NCBI GenBank assembly: GCA_903855985.1
Contig: CAIOAO010000100.1
Span: 1 to 64,000, forward strand
Length of the DNA: 64,000 nucleotides
Direction of reading: 5' to 3'
DNA from: an uncultured Opitutia bacterium
GTDB lineage: Bacteria > Verrucomicrobiota > Verrucomicrobiia > Opitutales > Opitutaceae
Each line of letters opens with the position of its first letter. Position 1 is the first letter of the stretch. The translations under genes were made by a program, and so were the position numbers. Shown here piece by piece: positions 18,507-58,853 of this stretch. The notes beneath the pieces are model-generated. The model did no database searches. It had not been told where the DNA came from and saw only the letters and a program-made list of their open reading frames with translations.

Positions 18507-18530
18507 GCCGCCACTGTATCCGGATTATTA

Positions 18531-18616
18531 ACCACGAAATACACGAAAAACACGAAAGCCGATCCTCGATCCTTTGAGTACAGATCGGCTTTCGTGTTTT
18601 TCGTGTATTTCGTGGT
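18531..18616. terminator. Perfect 34-bp inverted repeat between convergent genes
   Basis: The left arm 18531-18564 and right arm 18583-18616 are exact reverse complements with an 18-base loop. The arms are built from 9-bp units of the form cacgaaaNN. The structure lies between two convergent genes and its right arm touches the stop codon of the minus-strand gene. That suits a bidirectional terminator, although there is no run of T after the stem; function is inference. Confidence 0.65.
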
Positions 18617-19903
18617 CTAAACCATCCGCCTCAGCTTCTCGATCTCCCCCGACCTCGCCGGATCCCCGGCGAGGTTTTTCATTTCCAGCGGGTCATGCTC
18701 CAAATCGAAGAACAGCCAGGGCGTGCCGTCCTGGGTAAGCACCAGCTTCCGCGTTTTCGTCCGCACGCCCCGCCACATCCGGTCGCACTGGTACGGCAGC
18801 GCCACCACCGAAGGCATCGAAATCAAGGTAGGGCGGGTCTCCGACCCGCCATTTCGGGGAGAAGGCGGATCAAAGACCCGCCCTACCCCGGATTCCGCCC
18901 ACTGCTTCGTCCACTCCCCCACCTCCACGAGTGACACTGGCGTCTCCTCCTTCCGCGCCGCCACGCCCGGCGCCCGGACCAGCAGCGGCACGCGCACACT
19001 CTCCTCGTGCGGCCAGCCTTTGCGGAACAGCCCGTGCGCCCCGTGCATGTCCCCGTGCACACTGGTAAACACCACAATCGTGTCGCGCCCGTCTCCGTCG
19101 CTTGTCACTTGATCCTTGTCACTTGTCACTTGGCGCCAAAGGCGCCCAATCGCCCGGTCCGTCGCCTCGATGTGGGCGTAATAACCCGCGAGTTCCTGGC
19201 GCACCTTGCCTTCCGACTCCCCGCCGCGCGGCACATTGGCCGGTAGCACCAGCCGCAACGGGTCGCGAACCGCCACGCCCGCTGCCGGCGCGGCATACGG
19301 CGGATGCGGCGCCTCCAGGCTCACCATGCAGAACCATGGCGTCCGCTCCAGGCGCAGCCACTGCTGGGCGTTCTCGACCACGACGTCGCTCTGGTAGCCC
19401 TTCATCTGCGTGGGCTGCGGCAAACGCGTCCCGTGCAGCCAGGGATCGTTGAGCAGGAACCCGCCCTCGAATCCCTCCCAGAAATCAAACCCGCCCCGCG
19501 CCGCCGGCGGAATCAGGGTCTTGGCATGGCCCTCCCCGACCAGCGGGGCCGAGGAATCACGTTTCCCGAGGTGCCACTTCCCGAAGAACGCCGTCGCATA
19601 ACCCCGCTCCTTCATCGCGTGCGCCACCGTCCGCGCCGTCGCCGGCAGCGGATCAAAATAATCCCGCACCCCGTTCTCCGGCGAGGGCACGCCCGTCAGC
19701 AGCGCCGCCCGCGCGAACGGCCCGAACGGATGCGGCGTCACCGCCTGCGTGTAGTTCACGCTCTCCGCCGCCAGCGCGTCGAGGTTCGGCGTCCGCGCAT
19801 TGACGTCCCCCGCATACCCCGTCGCCGACGCCCGCCACTGCGTCGTGACGATCCAGAGAATGTTGGGTTTGGCTGGCAGGCTTTTCATCAAAATACTTGT
19901 CAC
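18617..19903 (-). CDS. Sulfatase-fold protein lacking catalytic residues (pseudo-sulfatase), with in-frame repeat insertions
   Basis: A 428-residue homologue of type I sulfatases, recognisable by NILWIVTTQW, ARTPNLDALAAESV, FFGKWHLGK and the SVHGDMHGAHGLFRKG block. The key residues are lost. The metal-binding Asp of the usual TDQ is Thr21. The Cys/Ser that becomes formylglycine is Gly61 and its Pro is Phe63 (GPFARAALLTG where C-x-P-x-R is expected). The metal Asp before HGD is Val282. Residues about 257-268 are encoded by a heptamer array and about 339-359 by a GC-rich hairpin repeat, both in frame. It lacks a signal peptide. It is either a decaying gene or a non-catalytic binding protein. 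Confidence 0.85.
   Translation of the reverse strand: MTSILMKSLPAKPNILWIVTTQWRASATGYAGDVNARTPNLDALAAESVNYTQAVTPHPFGPFARAALLTGVPSPENGVRDYFDPLPATARTVAHAMKERGYATAFFGKWHLGKRDSSAPLVGEGHAKTLIPPAARGGFDFWEGFEGGFLLNDPWLHGTRLPQPTQMKGYQSDVVVENAQQWLRLERTPWFCMVSLEAPHPPYAAPAAGVAVRDPLRLVLPANVPRGGESEGKVRQELAGYYAHIEATDRAIGRLWRQVTSDKDQVTSDGDGRDTIVVFTSVHGDMHGAHGLFRKGWPHEESVRVPLLVRAPGVAARKEETPVSLVEVGEWTKQWAESGVGRVFDPPSPRNGGSETRPTLISMPSVVALPYQCDRMWRGVRTKTRKLVLTQDGTPWLFFDLEHDPLEMKNLAGDPARSGEIEKLRRMV
18827..18887. repeat. GC-rich hairpin repeat inserted in the sulfatase-like frame
   Basis: A 61-bp element bounded by a perfect 14-bp inverted repeat (18827-18840 and 18874-18887), with smaller internal hairpins. The motif gtagggcggg recurs at 43544. 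It keeps the reading frame open and adds a GRVFDPPSPRNGGSETRPT-like stretch not expected in sulfatases. Confidence 0.7.
19101..19135. repeat. Heptamer array inside the sulfatase-like frame
   Basis: Five 7-bp units: cttgtca, cttgatc, cttgtca, cttgtca, cttggcg. On the coding strand they read QVTSDKDQVTSD-like residues directly before the VVFTSVHGD block. The same units occur upstream of proA and inside parC. Confidence 0.75.
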
Positions 19904-49842: not shown

Positions 49843-50514
49843 TCACGCCGCCCGCGGCTGTAGTCGCAGGTGCACGGCCGCGACCACCGCGCCGAGCGCC
49901 GCCCCGGCCAGGACGTCGAGCGCGACGTGCTGGCGCGTGGCGATCGTGGAATAGAGAATCCCCAGGAACCAGAGCCAGTTGAGCCCCCGGGCTAATTTCC
50001 CGGCCCGCATCTCGCCCAGCAGGCGGTGAAACCAGCAGGCGGTGAAAACCGCGAACGCCACGTGCAGCGAAGGACACGCGTTGCCCGAGGCATCCACCTG
50101 CTTGAGCATCCCGAAAAACGGATGCGGCGGCCAGTCCTGCGCCGAAATGGGCACCGCCGTCGGCCAGAACAGAAAAATCCCCAACCCAATCACGCTGAGC
50201 ACGGTCGCCGCCAGCAGGTACGAGATGAGCTCGCGGCGCCCGGTCAGCAGCGCCGGCGCGAGCGAGACGTAAAACCACAGCGACACATACAGCACCAGCG
50301 CATCGGGCGCGAAGGCGATCCACCGGTCCACCACCGTCAGCGGCATGGTCGTGATCGGGAAGACCGGGTGGTACAGCAGCTGGAAATAAACGGCGAAAAA
50401 CGCCGTCATGCCGAGCGTCGTGCCGAGGCACTTCGCCACCCAGCGCGTGCGCAGGCGGGGTCCAAGCTGGCGAAGCCAGCTGGCGCGGGGTGAGGGCAAG
50501 TCCGGCGAGTCCAT
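49843..50514 (-). CDS. PAP2-family membrane phosphatase
   Basis: A 223-residue protein with about six membrane segments. The phosphatase motifs are CPSLHVAFAV (the PSxH core) and RQHVALDVLAG (third motif with His and Asp). The layout is like the inositolphosphotransferase/Aur1-type PAP2 group. It probably removes phosphate from a lipid such as undecaprenyl pyrophosphate or phosphatidic acid, or moves a head group. The ATG at 50514 gives a cytoplasmic N-terminus before the first helix. Confidence 0.88.
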   Translation of the reverse strand: MDSPDLPSPRASWLRQLGPRLRTRWVAKCLGTTLGMTAFFAVYFQLLYHPVFPITTMPLTVVDRWIAFAPDALVLYVSLWFYVSLAPALLTGRRELISYLLAATVLSVIGLGIFLFWPTAVPISAQDWPPHPFFGMLKQVDASGNACPSLHVAFAVFTACWFHRLLGEMRAGKLARGLNWLWFLGILYSTIATRQHVALDVLAGAALGAVVAAVHLRLQPRAA

Positions 50515-50594
50515 GAACCAGCCCGCAGTAGGCGCACCCGCCGGGCCCACGGCAAGCGCGCAGGCAGTCATGCGGCGCCGCCTCCGCCCTCCAA

Positions 50595-50622
50595 CTTTCA
50601 GCTCTTCACTTTCAGCTTTCGC
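50595..50622. repeat. Heptamer array at the decarboxylase stop codon
   Basis: Four 7-bp units: ctttcag, ctcttca, ctttcag, ctttcgc. The TGA of the minus-strand decarboxylase gene (50612-50614) is formed within the array, so the last codons of that gene are repeat-derived. Confidence 0.65.
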
Positions 50623-51961
50623 GCGCCGCCCGCACAATCGCCACCACGCTGCGGTCCACATCCGCCTCGGTCGTGGCCCACGACGACACGCTGATGCGCA
50701 TCGCGGTCCGGCCCTGCCAGATGGTGACGCCGCACCAGCACGTGCCGTCGGCCTGCACGGCGGCGATGACGCGGTTGGTTTTCTCCGCGTCGCCAAACGC
50801 CACGAGCACCTGGTTGAGCACGACCTCGTTGAGAATCTCGCAACCCGCCGCGGCCAGTTTCGCTGCGAAGCGCTGCGCCTGCGTGCAATTGGCCTCGATC
50901 ATCCGGGCGATGCCGTCGCGGCCGAGCGAACGCAGCGCCGCCCAGACCTCGACGCCGCGGGCGCGCCGGGAAAGCTCCGGCGTGAAGTCCGCCGGGTTGC
51001 GAAACTCACTCTGCGTGGGGAGATATTCCGCCGTGATCGCCATCGCCGCCTGCAGCGCCAGCGGGTCGCGCACCAGCGCCAGCCCGCAGTCGTAGGGCAC
51101 GTTCAGCCACTTGTGCGCGTCCGTCGCCCACGAATCCGCCCCCGCGATCCCCGCCGCCAGATGCCGGCGCGCCGGCGTGGCCGCGGCCCACAGGCCGAAC
51201 GCGCCATCCACGTGCACCCACGCCCCCGCGGCGTGCGCCGTGCGGCAGACCTGCTCGATGGGATCGAACGCGCCGGTGTTCACGTTGCCGGCCTGCACGA
51301 CGACGATCGTGGGCCCCGAAATCTTCGGGAGCTGGTCCGCACGCATCCGGCCCTGGCCGTCCACCGGCACCTTGACGACGCGGGAACGCCCGAGCCCGAG
51401 GATGCCCAGCGACTTGGTCACCGAGGGATGCACCTCTGCACCGACAATGACCGTGATCGGAGGCGCACCGAACAGGCCCTGCGCCTCGACGTTCCAGCCC
51501 GCAGCCTTGAGCACGGCATGACGCGCCGCCGCCAGCGCGCAGAGATTCGCCACCGTCGCACCCGTCACAAAGGCTCCGCTGCAGTCCGGCGGCAGTTGCA
51601 GGACATCGAGCAACCACCGCAGCGCCACCTGCTCGACAAAGGCCGTGCTGGGCGTGGCGCGATAATAGGCGGTGTTCTGGTCCCATGCGCCCGCGAGCCA
51701 GTTCGCCGCGAGCGAGACGGGCAGCGAGCCGCCGATGACAAAGCCAAAGAATCGCGGACCCGCCATCGCCATCGTCGCCGGGGAGCCCACCTCATCGAGC
51801 AGCCGCAGGGTCTCGGCCGGGTCGCCCGCCTGCGCCGGCAGCGGTTCATCCAGCACGCTCAGGTGCGCCATCGCCGCAGCGGAGGGCGCAACCGCCCGCG
51901 TTTCCAAACCCTCGAGATAACGGATCGCGCGCCCGGCGGCATCGGTCAGGATTTCTTTCAT
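50612..51961 (-). CDS. PLP-dependent group II decarboxylase-like protein
   Basis: A 449-residue pyridoxal-phosphate enzyme of the aromatic-L-amino-acid/glutamate decarboxylase fold. The PLP lysine is Lys284 in TDAHKWLNVPYDCG, preceded by WVHVDGAFGLWAA with the cofactor-binding Asp. The N-terminal FFGFVIGGSLPVSLAANWLAGAWDQN segment is typical of this family. The amine product is not predictable. It is cytoplasmic. The stop codon lies within a heptamer array. Confidence 0.9.
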   Translation of the reverse strand: MKEILTDAAGRAIRYLEGLETRAVAPSAAAMAHLSVLDEPLPAQAGDPAETLRLLDEVGSPATMAMAGPRFFGFVIGGSLPVSLAANWLAGAWDQNTAYYRATPSTAFVEQVALRWLLDVLQLPPDCSGAFVTGATVANLCALAAARHAVLKAAGWNVEAQGLFGAPPITVIVGAEVHPSVTKSLGILGLGRSRVVKVPVDGQGRMRADQLPKISGPTIVVVQAGNVNTGAFDPIEQVCRTAHAAGAWVHVDGAFGLWAAATPARRHLAAGIAGADSWATDAHKWLNVPYDCGLALVRDPLALQAAMAITAEYLPTQSEFRNPADFTPELSRRARGVEVWAALRSLGRDGIARMIEANCTQAQRFAAKLAAAGCEILNEVVLNQVLVAFGDAEKTNRVIAAVQADGTCWCGVTIWQGRTAMRISVSSWATTEADVDRSVVAIVRAARES

Positions 51962-54077: not shown

Positions 54078-54503
54078 ATGAAACGCTCCGCCTCCGCCGT
54101 CTGGAACGGCTCCCTCAAAACCGGCACCGGCAGTCTCACGACGCCCGGAGGTGCCTTGTCCTCCACGCCCTATTCCTTCAACTCGCGCTTCGCGTCCGGC
54201 CCCGGCACGAATCCCGAGGAAATGATCGCCGCCGCCCACTCCGGCTGCTTCGCCATGGCCCTGTCCGCCACCCTCGGCGAGGCCGGGATCACCCCGGAGA
54301 AAATCGAGGTCACCGCCGAGGTCACCCTCGACAACGTCCCGCCCGCCGGCTGGACCGTCACCGCCTCGCATCTCATCCTCACCGCGAAGATCCCCGGCAT
54401 CGACGACACGAAATTCCAGGAAATCGCCGCCAAGGCGAAGGCCGGCTGCCCGATTTCCCGGCTGCTCAACGCCCAGATCACGCTCAGCGCCACGCTGGCC
54501 TGA
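54078..54503 (+). CDS. OsmC family peroxiredoxin-like protein
   Basis: A 141-residue OsmC/Ohr-fold protein. The two redox cysteines are C57 in AAAHSGCFAM and C124 in AGCPISRLL, as in OsmC proteins that reduce organic hydroperoxides. The GPGTNPEEMIAAAH segment and length match OsmC rather than Ohr. The ATG at 54078 starts at the first strand (KRSASAVWNGSLKTG). It is divergent from the hypothetical membrane protein. Confidence 0.93.
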   Translation: MKRSASAVWNGSLKTGTGSLTTPGGALSSTPYSFNSRFASGPGTNPEEMIAAAHSGCFAMALSATLGEAGITPEKIEVTAEVTLDNVPPAGWTVTASHLILTAKIPGIDDTKFQEIAAKAKAGCPISRLLNAQITLSATLA

Positions 54504-56606: not shown

Positions 56607-57347
56607 CTAGCGGAGCGCGGCGGCGACTTTCTGCACACAGTGCGCGAGGGCCGGACCGGGGTCGGCGATGTCGCCCTCGTACTCGATGATGACGCTGGCC
56701 GTGGGTTCATTCGCCGACAGCAGCGCCAGCAGCTTCGGCAGGTTGAGATTGCCGTCGCCGAGGATGACATCCGCCGGGCGCCCGGTCCGGTCGAAGACGA
56801 AGTCCTTGAGGTGCACGCCATACAGCCGGTCGGCGAATTTCTCCGCCATTGCCACCGGATCCTCATGCGCGTCGAGGGCCCAGGCGGTGTCGAGGCAGAG
56901 GCCGATGCGCGGCGAGGTGCTGGCGAAGACCTGCGCGAGCATCTGCGAGTTGCCGAGCCAGTGACGTCCGCCGTGGTTGTGGATCGCGAGACGCAGGTCG
57001 AACTCGTCGGCGACCCGCTCGGCGGCCCGCCAGACCTCGGGCCCGGCGTCCGGGGCGAAATCCACGGCGATCACCGACGCGCCCGCCGCGCGCATGAATT
57101 CCGCGAGCTTCCGCTCCCGGGCGAGGTTGCCGGCAAATCGCTCCACGCCGATGCTGGCGATGCGCACCCCGGCCGCGCGGCACGCCGCGATGATCGCGCC
57201 GGCGTCACGGGTAAAGTCGCCATGCACGCCGCTGAGCTCGACGGTGGCGACGCCGCAGGCCTTCAGCCGCGGCAGCACCTCGGCGAGGGTTTTGAAACCG
57301 CGGAAACAATAGCTCTGGATGCCGATCTGGGCCGCGAGGTTTTTCAT
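56607..57347 (-). CDS. Sugar phosphate isomerase/epimerase (xylose isomerase-like TIM barrel)
   Basis: A 246-residue AP-endonuclease-2-fold isomerase. The sequence starts AAQIGIQSYCFRGFKTLAEVLPRL and shows VELSGVHGDF, the metal-binding IHNHGG, GLCLDTAW and VIIEYEGD segments in order, with Glu, His and Asp ligands where the family has them. It probably interconverts keto sugars together with the downstream Gfo/Idh/MocA enzyme. The ATG at 57347 begins the first barrel strand; the open frame upstream runs through repeat sequence. Confidence 0.93.
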   Translation of the reverse strand: MKNLAAQIGIQSYCFRGFKTLAEVLPRLKACGVATVELSGVHGDFTRDAGAIIAACRAAGVRIASIGVERFAGNLARERKLAEFMRAAGASVIAVDFAPDAGPEVWRAAERVADEFDLRLAIHNHGGRHWLGNSQMLAQVFASTSPRIGLCLDTAWALDAHEDPVAMAEKFADRLYGVHLKDFVFDRTGRPADVILGDGNLNLPKLLALLSANEPTASVIIEYEGDIADPGPALAHCVQKVAAALR

Positions 57348-57537: not shown

Positions 57538-57834
57538 ATGGCCAAGAGCGCGCAGTTTCCCGGGAAGAGCAGCGAGGACGGGGAATTTGAGCGGCAGGAG
57601 GATGCGTTTCGCGGCTGGGTCCGGGCCGACGCGGTCTACCACGGCCACTTCAAGTGCAACCTGCGCCGCATCGCCGACTACCCGAACCTCCGGCGTCTCC
57701 TGCGGGATCTCGACCAGACCCCCGGCATCGCCGAGACCGTCAATTTCGACCACATCAAGCGCCACTACTACGTCACCCACACCGAGATCAACCCTACCCA
57801 AATTGTCCCCATCGGTCCCGATCCCTATTTATGA
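57538..57834 (+). CDS. Internally deleted glutathionyl-hydroquinone reductase (Xi-class GST remnant)
   Basis: The 98-residue frame joins two separated parts of a glutathionyl-hydroquinone reductase (YqjG/ECM4 type, normally about 310-330 residues). Residues 1-31 match the N-terminus (EDGEFERQEDAFRGWVRAD). Residues 32-98 match the C-terminus (AVYHGHFKCNLRRIADYPNL, then VNFDHIKRHYYVTH and INPTQIVPIGP). The central 220 or so residues, including the catalytic CPWAHR and the thioredoxin fold, are missing with the frame kept. It cannot be an active reductase. Its TGA overlaps the ATG of the epimerase gene. It may survive as a coupled leader for that gene or be a recent deletion. Confidence 0.82.
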   Translation: MAKSAQFPGKSSEDGEFERQEDAFRGWVRADAVYHGHFKCNLRRIADYPNLRRLLRDLDQTPGIAETVNFDHIKRHYYVTHTEINPTQIVPIGPDPYL

Positions 57835-58853
57835 AAACACTCATCATTGGCGGCACGGGGCTCATCTCCACGGGCATAGTGAAGGCGCTGCTGAAACGCG
57901 GGGCGGACATCACGGTATTTAACCGCGGCCAGACCGATGACCGGCTGGGCGGCGGGGTGAAGCACCTCGCCGGCGATCGCAACGATTTCGCCGCCTTCGC
58001 AGCCGCCATGGCCGCCGCCGGCCCGTGGGATGTCGTCATCGACATGATCTGCTTCCGCCCCGACCAGGCGGAAAGCGACGTGCGCGCCTTCGCCGGGCGC
58101 TGCGGGCACTTTATCTTCTGCAGCACCGTCTGCACTTACGGCAACACGCAGACCATCCTCCCCACCCTCGAAACCACGCCGCAGGCGCCCCTCTCGGCGT
58201 ACGGCCGGGACAAGGTCGCCTGCGAACAGGTTTTCCTGCGCGCCCATGCCGCGAAAAAAATGCCCGTCACGATTTTCCGCCCGTCGCACACCTACGGCCC
58301 GGGCGGCAATGTCATCAACAACCTCGGCTGGGAGGCGACCTTCATTGCCCGCCTGCGCCAGGGCCGGCCGATCGTCGTCAGCGGCGACGGCCACGGGCTG
58401 TGGCAGAGTGCTTACTCCGAGGATGTGGGCGTGGGATTCGCCCATGCCGCGGGCCAACCCATCTGCTTTGGCGAGGCCTACAACATTGTCGGCGACGAGA
58501 TCGTGACGTGGGACGAGTACACCCAGCGCACCGCGGCGGCCATCGGCGCACCGGCGCCGCGCCTCGTGCACATCCCCACCGACCTGCTGCTGACGCTCGA
58601 CCGTCCGCGCTACGCCGCGCTCGAGGAAATCTTCCGCTTTCACGGCGTCTACTCCAGCGCGAAGCTGAAGCGCGACGTGCCCGAGTACCGCTCCGCCATG
58701 CCGTATGCCGAGGGCGTGCGCCGCACCGTCGCGTGGATGGATCAGCACAAAAAAATCGCGCCAGCCGACAGCGACCCGCAGGAGGACCGCCTGGTCGCGG
58801 TGTGGGACCAGCTCTCCCGCGACCTGCAAAAACAACTGGCAACCCAGGCGTAA
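57831..58853 (+). CDS. NAD-dependent epimerase/dehydratase family protein
   Basis: A 340-residue short-chain-dehydrogenase-like protein. The nucleotide-binding motif is IIGGTGLISTG near the start and the active site is YGRDK (Tyr and Lys) preceded by CSTVCTYG. It resembles atypical SDRs that act on nucleotide sugars or isoflavone-like substrates. Starting at the ATG overlapped by the stop of the deleted reductase, its translation is probably coupled to that frame. It is convergent with the RNB gene. Confidence 0.92.
   Translation: MKTLIIGGTGLISTGIVKALLKRGADITVFNRGQTDDRLGGGVKHLAGDRNDFAAFAAAMAAAGPWDVVIDMICFRPDQAESDVRAFAGRCGHFIFCSTVCTYGNTQTILPTLETTPQAPLSAYGRDKVACEQVFLRAHAAKKMPVTIFRPSHTYGPGGNVINNLGWEATFIARLRQGRPIVVSGDGHGLWQSAYSEDVGVGFAHAAGQPICFGEAYNIVGDEIVTWDEYTQRTAAAIGAPAPRLVHIPTDLLLTLDRPRYAALEEIFRFHGVYSSAKLKRDVPEYRSAMPYAEGVRRTVAWMDQHKKIAPADSDPQEDRLVAVWDQLSRDLQKQLATQA

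What the first reader, a model, noticed from the sequence alone, without database searches (positions are those of the whole stretch)
57538..57834. In-frame internal deletion of a glutathionyl-hydroquinone reductase
A 98-residue frame fuses the first ~31 and last ~67 residues expected of a YqjG/ECM4-type enzyme and removes the active-site middle. The junction lies at VRAD/AVY, where N-terminal GWVRAD and the C-terminal RFDAVY of normal enzymes share similar codons, consistent with a short-homology deletion. The frame stays open and overlaps the next gene by ATGA, so it may be kept for translational coupling.
Basis: partly seen in the sequence, partly recalled or inferred. Interest (0 to 1): 0.62.

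Follow-up and report, generated by a model that had tools for sequence, protein, structure and literature searches.

The report
Decayed reductase gene, reading frame intact
A bacterial detoxification enzyme gene has lost its middle two thirds, including the catalytic site, in one 618-base deletion and is now most likely a drifting pseudogene that happens to remain readable, which is an ordinary kind of gene loss.

Summary
ORF 57538-57834 (98 aa) fuses residues 1-30 and the last 68 residues of a glutathionyl-hydroquinone reductase (GHR). A same-genus genome (G003) keeps the intact 304-aa gene at the same place. The deletion is 618 bp (206 codons), lies at a 5-bp exact repeat inside a 12-bp imperfect repeat, and removes the CPWA catalytic motif. 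No second copy was found in the assembly.

The remnant behaves as a pseudogene. On its branch it has 5 nonsynonymous to 2 synonymous changes; the intact G003 gene has 0:5 and the neighbouring epimerase 6:18. A sister species, G005, destroyed the same gene independently by two other in-frame deletions. Three glutathione-synthesis families were not detected in G000, G003 or G005.

The open frame needs no special explanation. In these GC-rich genes short direct repeats lie in codon phase about half the time (GHR), 74-100% (osmC) or 66-79% (other window genes), so repeat-mediated deletions tend to be in frame. Eight of eight internal deletions in GHR and the nearby osmC are in frame: joint chance about 0.04 with this bias, not 0.00015. 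The ATGA overlap with the next gene is also present beside the intact gene. Coupling may add mild selection for the frame; nothing here requires it.

The parts
57538..57834 (+). 98-aa remnant ORF of glutathionyl-hydroquinone reductase: residues 1-30 plus the last 68 of a 304-aa enzyme
57627..57631 (+). deletion junction: CGACG exact 5-bp microhomology within a 12-bp imperfect direct repeat; 618 bp missing
   Evidence: alignment to G003:C70; against G009, trimmed to a common end, also 618 bp, with 3 bp exact homology
57831..57834 (+). ATGA overlap: GHR stop / epimerase start, shared with intact G003 and eroded G005; a 72-bp gap replaces it in G009
57831..58853 (+). intact 340-aa NAD-dependent epimerase/dehydratase downstream
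   Evidence: PF01370, E 1.2e-26; 11 of 12 same-genus genomes match at E<=1e-100
56607..57347 (-). divergent neighbour: xylose-isomerase-like TIM-barrel protein; left flank of the locus also in G003, G009 and G011
   Evidence: PF01261; the start at 57347 is by inspection of the sequence
54078..54503 (+). OsmC-like gene, intact here (141 aa), independently eroded by in-frame deletions in G003 (54+87 bp) and G005 (177+69+42 bp)
   Evidence: PF02566

Best explanation
The ORF is a decayed allele of a GHR gene. A single 618-bp deletion between two short imperfect direct repeats (inferred mechanism: replication slippage or RecA-independent misalignment) removed the catalytic Cys-Pro-Trp-Ala motif, the rest of the thioredoxin-like domain and most of the helical domain. 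Because of codon-position base composition, short repeats in this GC-rich gene lie in codon phase about half the time, so an in-frame outcome was likely and the frame stayed open. The remnant now drifts. The gene was probably dispensable; one possible reason is that glutathione synthesis is not detectable in this genome (inferred). Shown: the anatomy, the junction, single copy in the assembly, relaxed substitutions, parallel loss in G005, the phase bias of repeats. Inferred: the slippage mechanism, the reason for dispensability, absence of function.
For: Same locus and flanks as the intact gene in G003. Clean 618-bp deletion at a short repeat. The CPWA motif with its catalytic cysteine lies in the deleted part; no Pfam GST domain is found in the 98-aa ORF, against GST_N_2 and GST_C_2 in the intact protein. 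Branch changes N:S: remnant 5:2, G005 remnant 10:0, intact G003 0:5, epimerase 6:18 (window) and 5:16 (G005); pooled remnants 15:2 against epimerase 11:34, Fisher P 7e-6; window alone against its epimerase P 0.037. Independent, non-nested deletions of the same gene in G005. Of 252 family genomes 51 have GHR matches, 44 of them near full length; only G000 and G005 show an open N+C fusion. GSH synthesis: GCS2 in 2 of 12 genus genomes (G006, G009), GSH-S_ATP 0 of 12, Glu_cys_ligase 0 of 12. In-phase fraction of short direct repeats 0.39-0.55 in GHR and 0.66-0.79 in other mid-size window gene calls; shuffles that keep codon-position composition reproduce the excess (0.51-0.85), full shuffles do not (0.29-0.37).
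Against: The intact G003 gene is under purifying selection (0N:5S) although G003 also lacks the tested GSH-synthesis families, so lack of glutathione alone does not explain the loss. The window branch carries only seven changes. All eight deletions in GHR and osmC being in frame is at the lucky end even with the phase bias (about 0.04), which leaves room for weak selection on the frame. Not every junction in the set has a convincing repeat: in 2 of 9 the longest in-register run is only 4 bp (chance 0.12 and 0.16), and in 1 it is 5 bp with chance 0.06.
Confidence: 0.86

Rival explanations
1. The remnant's translation is selected for, because ribosomes terminating at the ATGA overlap reinitiate on the epimerase; only frame-keeping deletions were tolerated.
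For: ATGA overlap is kept in G000, G003 and G005; no Shine-Dalgarno match before the epimerase; 8 of 8 internal deletions in GHR and osmC in frame, no stop inside any of the four remnants.
Against: 22 of 32 window gene calls also lack a Shine-Dalgarno match. In-phase repeats explain most of the in-frame excess. osmC, which does not overlap its neighbour, shows the same in-frame erosion, as does an HtrA-like protease gene in G003. Lack of stops has probability about 0.36 under random substitution, small indels not modelled.
Confidence: 0.2
2. The 98-aa product is a functional small protein made of the N-terminal arm and the last helices of the enzyme.
For: The frame is open and the C-terminal part is still 92% identical to G003.
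Against: N:S on the branch is 5:2 against 0:5 for the intact gene. No other genome among 252 in the family shows the same form; the G005 remnant keeps different residues. Of the 80 public loci kept from a capped scan none is an N+C fusion.
Confidence: 0.04
3. Assembly collapse: the genome really has the full gene.
For: Draft assembly of 110 contigs; reads not available.
Against: The exact repeat at the junction is only 5 bp, far below assembler word sizes (general knowledge). The missing part was not found elsewhere in the assembly. Relaxed substitutions in the remnant imply time without function. The sister species also lost the gene.
Confidence: 0.04

Closest known systems
Xi-class glutathione transferase / glutathionyl-hydroquinone reductase (YqjG, ECM4, PcpF)
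   Same: Retained N-terminal arm and last 68 residues align with the family; intact orthologue at the same locus in G003.
   Different: Catalytic CPWA motif, thioredoxin-like domain and most of the helical domain are deleted.
Bacterial pseudogenes formed by internal deletion between short direct repeats (kind named from general knowledge)
   Same: Deletion at a short repeat, relaxed substitutions, parallel loss in a relative.
   Different: Frame stays open, so it looks like a short gene to an annotator.

Membership tests
Glutathionyl-hydroquinone reductase (functional enzyme) | Catalytic cysteine in the strictly conserved CPWA motif | tested here: not met
   Motif lies within the deleted 206 codons; motif and catalytic cysteine as stated in passages of PMC5063366.
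Glutathionyl-hydroquinone reductase (functional enzyme) | Thioredoxin-like N domain plus all-helical C domain | tested here: not met
   No GST domain in Pfam for the 98-aa ORF; the intact G003 protein has both.
Glutathionyl-hydroquinone reductase (functional enzyme) | Reduces glutathionyl-hydroquinones | not testable with these tools
   Needs an assay.
Pseudogene (GHR-derived) | Homologous to a functional-looking gene at the same locus in a relative | tested here: met
   G003 and G009 intact, conserved flanks.
Pseudogene (GHR-derived) | Relaxed selection | tested here: met
   5N:2S against 0:5 in the intact gene, P 0.027, and 6:18 in the epimerase, P 0.037; small counts.
Pseudogene (GHR-derived) | No product or function | not testable with these tools
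   Needs expression data.
Conserved small-protein family | The same short form in several genomes | tested here: not met

The most novel reading that the evidence does not exclude
In GC-rich bacteria gene decay runs preferentially through in-frame deletions, because codon-position composition puts short direct repeats in codon phase. It leaves 'open-frame pseudogenes' (start plus end of the protein) that gene callers report as short genes, and that keep downstream coupled genes translated by default. In this genus GHR, osmC and an HtrA-like protease each show it, the first two in two lineages independently.
Probability: 0.35. Interest if true: 0.45.

Novelty: new member of a known kind. Interest (0 to 1): 0.22.

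Why it matters
Short open frames of this sort are likely to be annotated as small proteins although they are gene remnants. The repeat-phase control shows that an intact frame after a large deletion is weak evidence for retained function in GC-rich genes. The three-species set (GHR intact in one, eroded differently in two) is a clean example of parallel loss of a glutathione-dependent enzyme.

Tried and rejected
Selection for the frame as the main cause: the first count (8 of 8 in frame, naive chance 1/6561) looked striking, but the codon-phase control raised the expectation to about 0.04 (with rounded rates of 0.5 and 0.8 that I chose). Left out of that count: an 89-bp and a 23-bp replacement that straddle the stop of osmC in G005, and the loss of most of a membrane-phosphatase-like gene at 49850-50482 (633 bp in G003; 658 or 703 bp in G005, depending on the alignment).

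Strict in-frame erosion as a rule of this genus: rejected. The scans of further stretches listed 12 in-gene gaps of 30 bp or more, 9 of them multiples of three (4 of 5, about 244 kb aligned, G000-G003; 5 of 7, about 128 kb aligned G005-G000 and 223 kb G005-G003). The three others are 331 bp in a gamma-glutamyltransferase-like gene (name recalled from its sequence) that in G005 also carries frameshifts and stops, 34 bp in a doubtful 5' extension, and 140 bp in a doubtful 134-aa call. Among the nine, the 66-bp and 270-bp gaps also lie in what look like doubtful N-terminal extensions, one 39-bp gap was listed for both G003 and G005 in the same gene, and the 51-bp gap repeats one already counted in GHR. 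The scans are not exhaustive: they did not list the 618-bp and 648-bp GHR gaps or the G005 osmC gaps (probably hidden by overlapping ORF calls), and caught the G003 osmC gaps only through an antisense call. Gaps crossing gene ends and gaps with poor flanks were left out.

Shared ancestral deletion of G000 and G005: rejected, because each keeps residues that the other lost. Missing Shine-Dalgarno as proof of coupling: rejected. Literature: searches showed in the rows listed (15 of 21 and 15 of 174 papers) no title on codon-phased repeats and frame-preserving decay; searches returned no papers. I saw listings only, apart from passages of PMC5063366. Searches were used as listings only.

Full report
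What is there. The window lies in contig C100 of a 2.94-Mb, 110-contig draft genome, G000. ORF 57538-57834 codes for 98 residues and ends in ATGA, which overlaps the start of a 340-aa NAD-epimerase. To the left, on the other strand, lie a xylose-isomerase-like gene and a Gfo/Idh oxidoreductase, and further left, on the plus strand, a YchJ-like gene and an OsmC-like gene. The order osmC, ychJ, gfo, isomerase, GHR, epimerase, RNase II is the same in G003 and G009 of the same genus. G011 has the order without osmC and GHR. At this locus G005 lacks gfo and the isomerase.

The deletion. Compared with the intact 304-aa GHR of G003, the window lacks exactly 618 bp, 206 codons. The junction lies within CGACG, in the imperfect repeat TCCGG(GC/TT)CGACG. 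Exact homology of 5 bp or more at the breakpoint occurs in 0.9% of random breakpoint pairs in that gene; by a looser in-register measure the chance is 3.4%. The removed part holds the CPWA motif, described as strictly conserved in GHRs with a catalytic cysteine (passages of PMC5063366). Pfam finds no GST domain in the 98-aa ORF, against both GST domains in the intact protein. No other copy or piece was found in the assembly.

Parallel loss. In G005 the same gene is 71 codons long and has two other deletions, 51 and 648 bp. Each remnant keeps residues that the other lost, so the losses are independent. The OsmC-like gene is intact in the window and in G009, but carries two deletions in G003 (54, 87 bp; 94 aa left) and three in G005 (177, 69, 42 bp; 45 aa left). 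An HtrA-like protease gene (332 aa in G000; Pfam Trypsin_2 and PDZ_2) is reduced to 76 aa in G003 by a 768-bp in-frame deletion at a repeat that reads CCGGCGGTGG on both sides. Of these nine junctions six have an in-register exact run of 5 to 10 bp that is unusual for the gene (chance 0.0001 to 0.034), one has 5 bp at chance 0.06, and two have only 4 bp (chance 0.12 and 0.16).

Spread. GHR matches occur in 51 of 252 family genomes: 44 near full length; G196 and G263 split by a frame change; G033 and G266 at contig ends; G089 a weak match with a stop; and G000 and G005, the only open internal-deletion forms.

Selection. Changes on each branch, with G003 (or the window) and G009 as references: window remnant 5 nonsynonymous and 2 synonymous; G005 remnant 10 and 0; intact G003 gene 0 and 5; epimerase 6:18 (window), 5:16 (G005), 7:18 (G003). 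Fisher one-sided P is 0.037 for the window remnant against its epimerase, 0.027 against the intact G003 gene, and 7e-6 for both remnants pooled against the epimerase. The counts for the window alone are small.

Why the frame is open. In the intact GHR 39-55% of short direct repeats lie in the same codon phase, in osmC 74-100%, over the window's mid-size gene-79%, and in the protease 59-63%. Shuffles of the three genes that keep base composition at each codon position give 51-85%; full shuffles give 29-37%. So an in-frame outcome is the likely one for repeat-mediated deletions here. With rounded rates of 0.5 for three GHR events and 0.8 for five osmC events the chance that all eight are in frame is 0.041, against 0.00015 for one third each (arithmetic). 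Adding the protease event gives 0.026. Lack of stop codons in the four remnants has probability 0.36 under random substitution; small indels were not modelled. In further stretches 9 of 12 listed gaps are in frame; the exceptions, doubtful rows and limits of that scan are told under Tried and rejected. G005 also holds an ordinary frameshifted pseudogene of a gamma-glutamyltransferase-like gene (name recalled).

Coupling. The ATGA overlap is present in G003 with an intact GHR; in G009 a 72-bp gap separates the two genes. The epimerase start has no Shine-Dalgarno match, but 22 of 32 window gene calls tested have none either (gene starts there are mechanical). Coupling is possible and would add weak selection for the frame; it was not shown.

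Why the gene may be dispensable. Glutathione-synthesis families: GCS2 in G006 and G009 only, GSH-S_ATP in 0 of 12, Glu_cys_ligase in 0 of 12 same-genus genomes. Other routes to glutathione or another thiol were not tested. Against this as the full reason, G003 has none of the three and still keeps a constrained GHR. Five of the 12 genus genomes have no GHR match at all.

Verdict. A real, independently repeated, ordinary gene loss with an open frame. The most interesting residue is the general point about codon-phased repeats.

Noticed in passing
L193:6580-7578 (G000:C1) and reverse complement of L192 near 15135 (G003:C20): HtrA-like protease gene intact in G000 (332 aa) and reduced to a 76-aa open remnant in G003 by a 768-bp in-frame deletion at a 10-bp repeat.
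   Followed up: partly
L261:5700-7400 (G005:C9) against L246 (G000:C34): Gamma-glutamyltransferase-like gene (name recalled), 597 aa in G000, is a classical pseudogene in G005 with frameshifts, stops and a 331-bp out-of-frame deletion.
   Followed up: partly
49843-50796: A membrane-phosphatase-like ORF (PAP2 type, recalled from sequence) on the minus strand; 633 bp of it are missing in G003 and about 660-700 bp in G005, while G009 keeps the stretch at 77% identity.
   Followed up: partly
18520-18905: Short dispersed repeats with many matches on both strands in G003 and G005 contigs, probably palindromic interspersed repeats.
   Followed up: no
L195 and L199 (G000:C3, C7) against L188 (G003:C16): About 13 kb is 99% identical between G000 and G003, against 83-96% in the other rows; looks recently shared or strongly conserved.
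   Followed up: no
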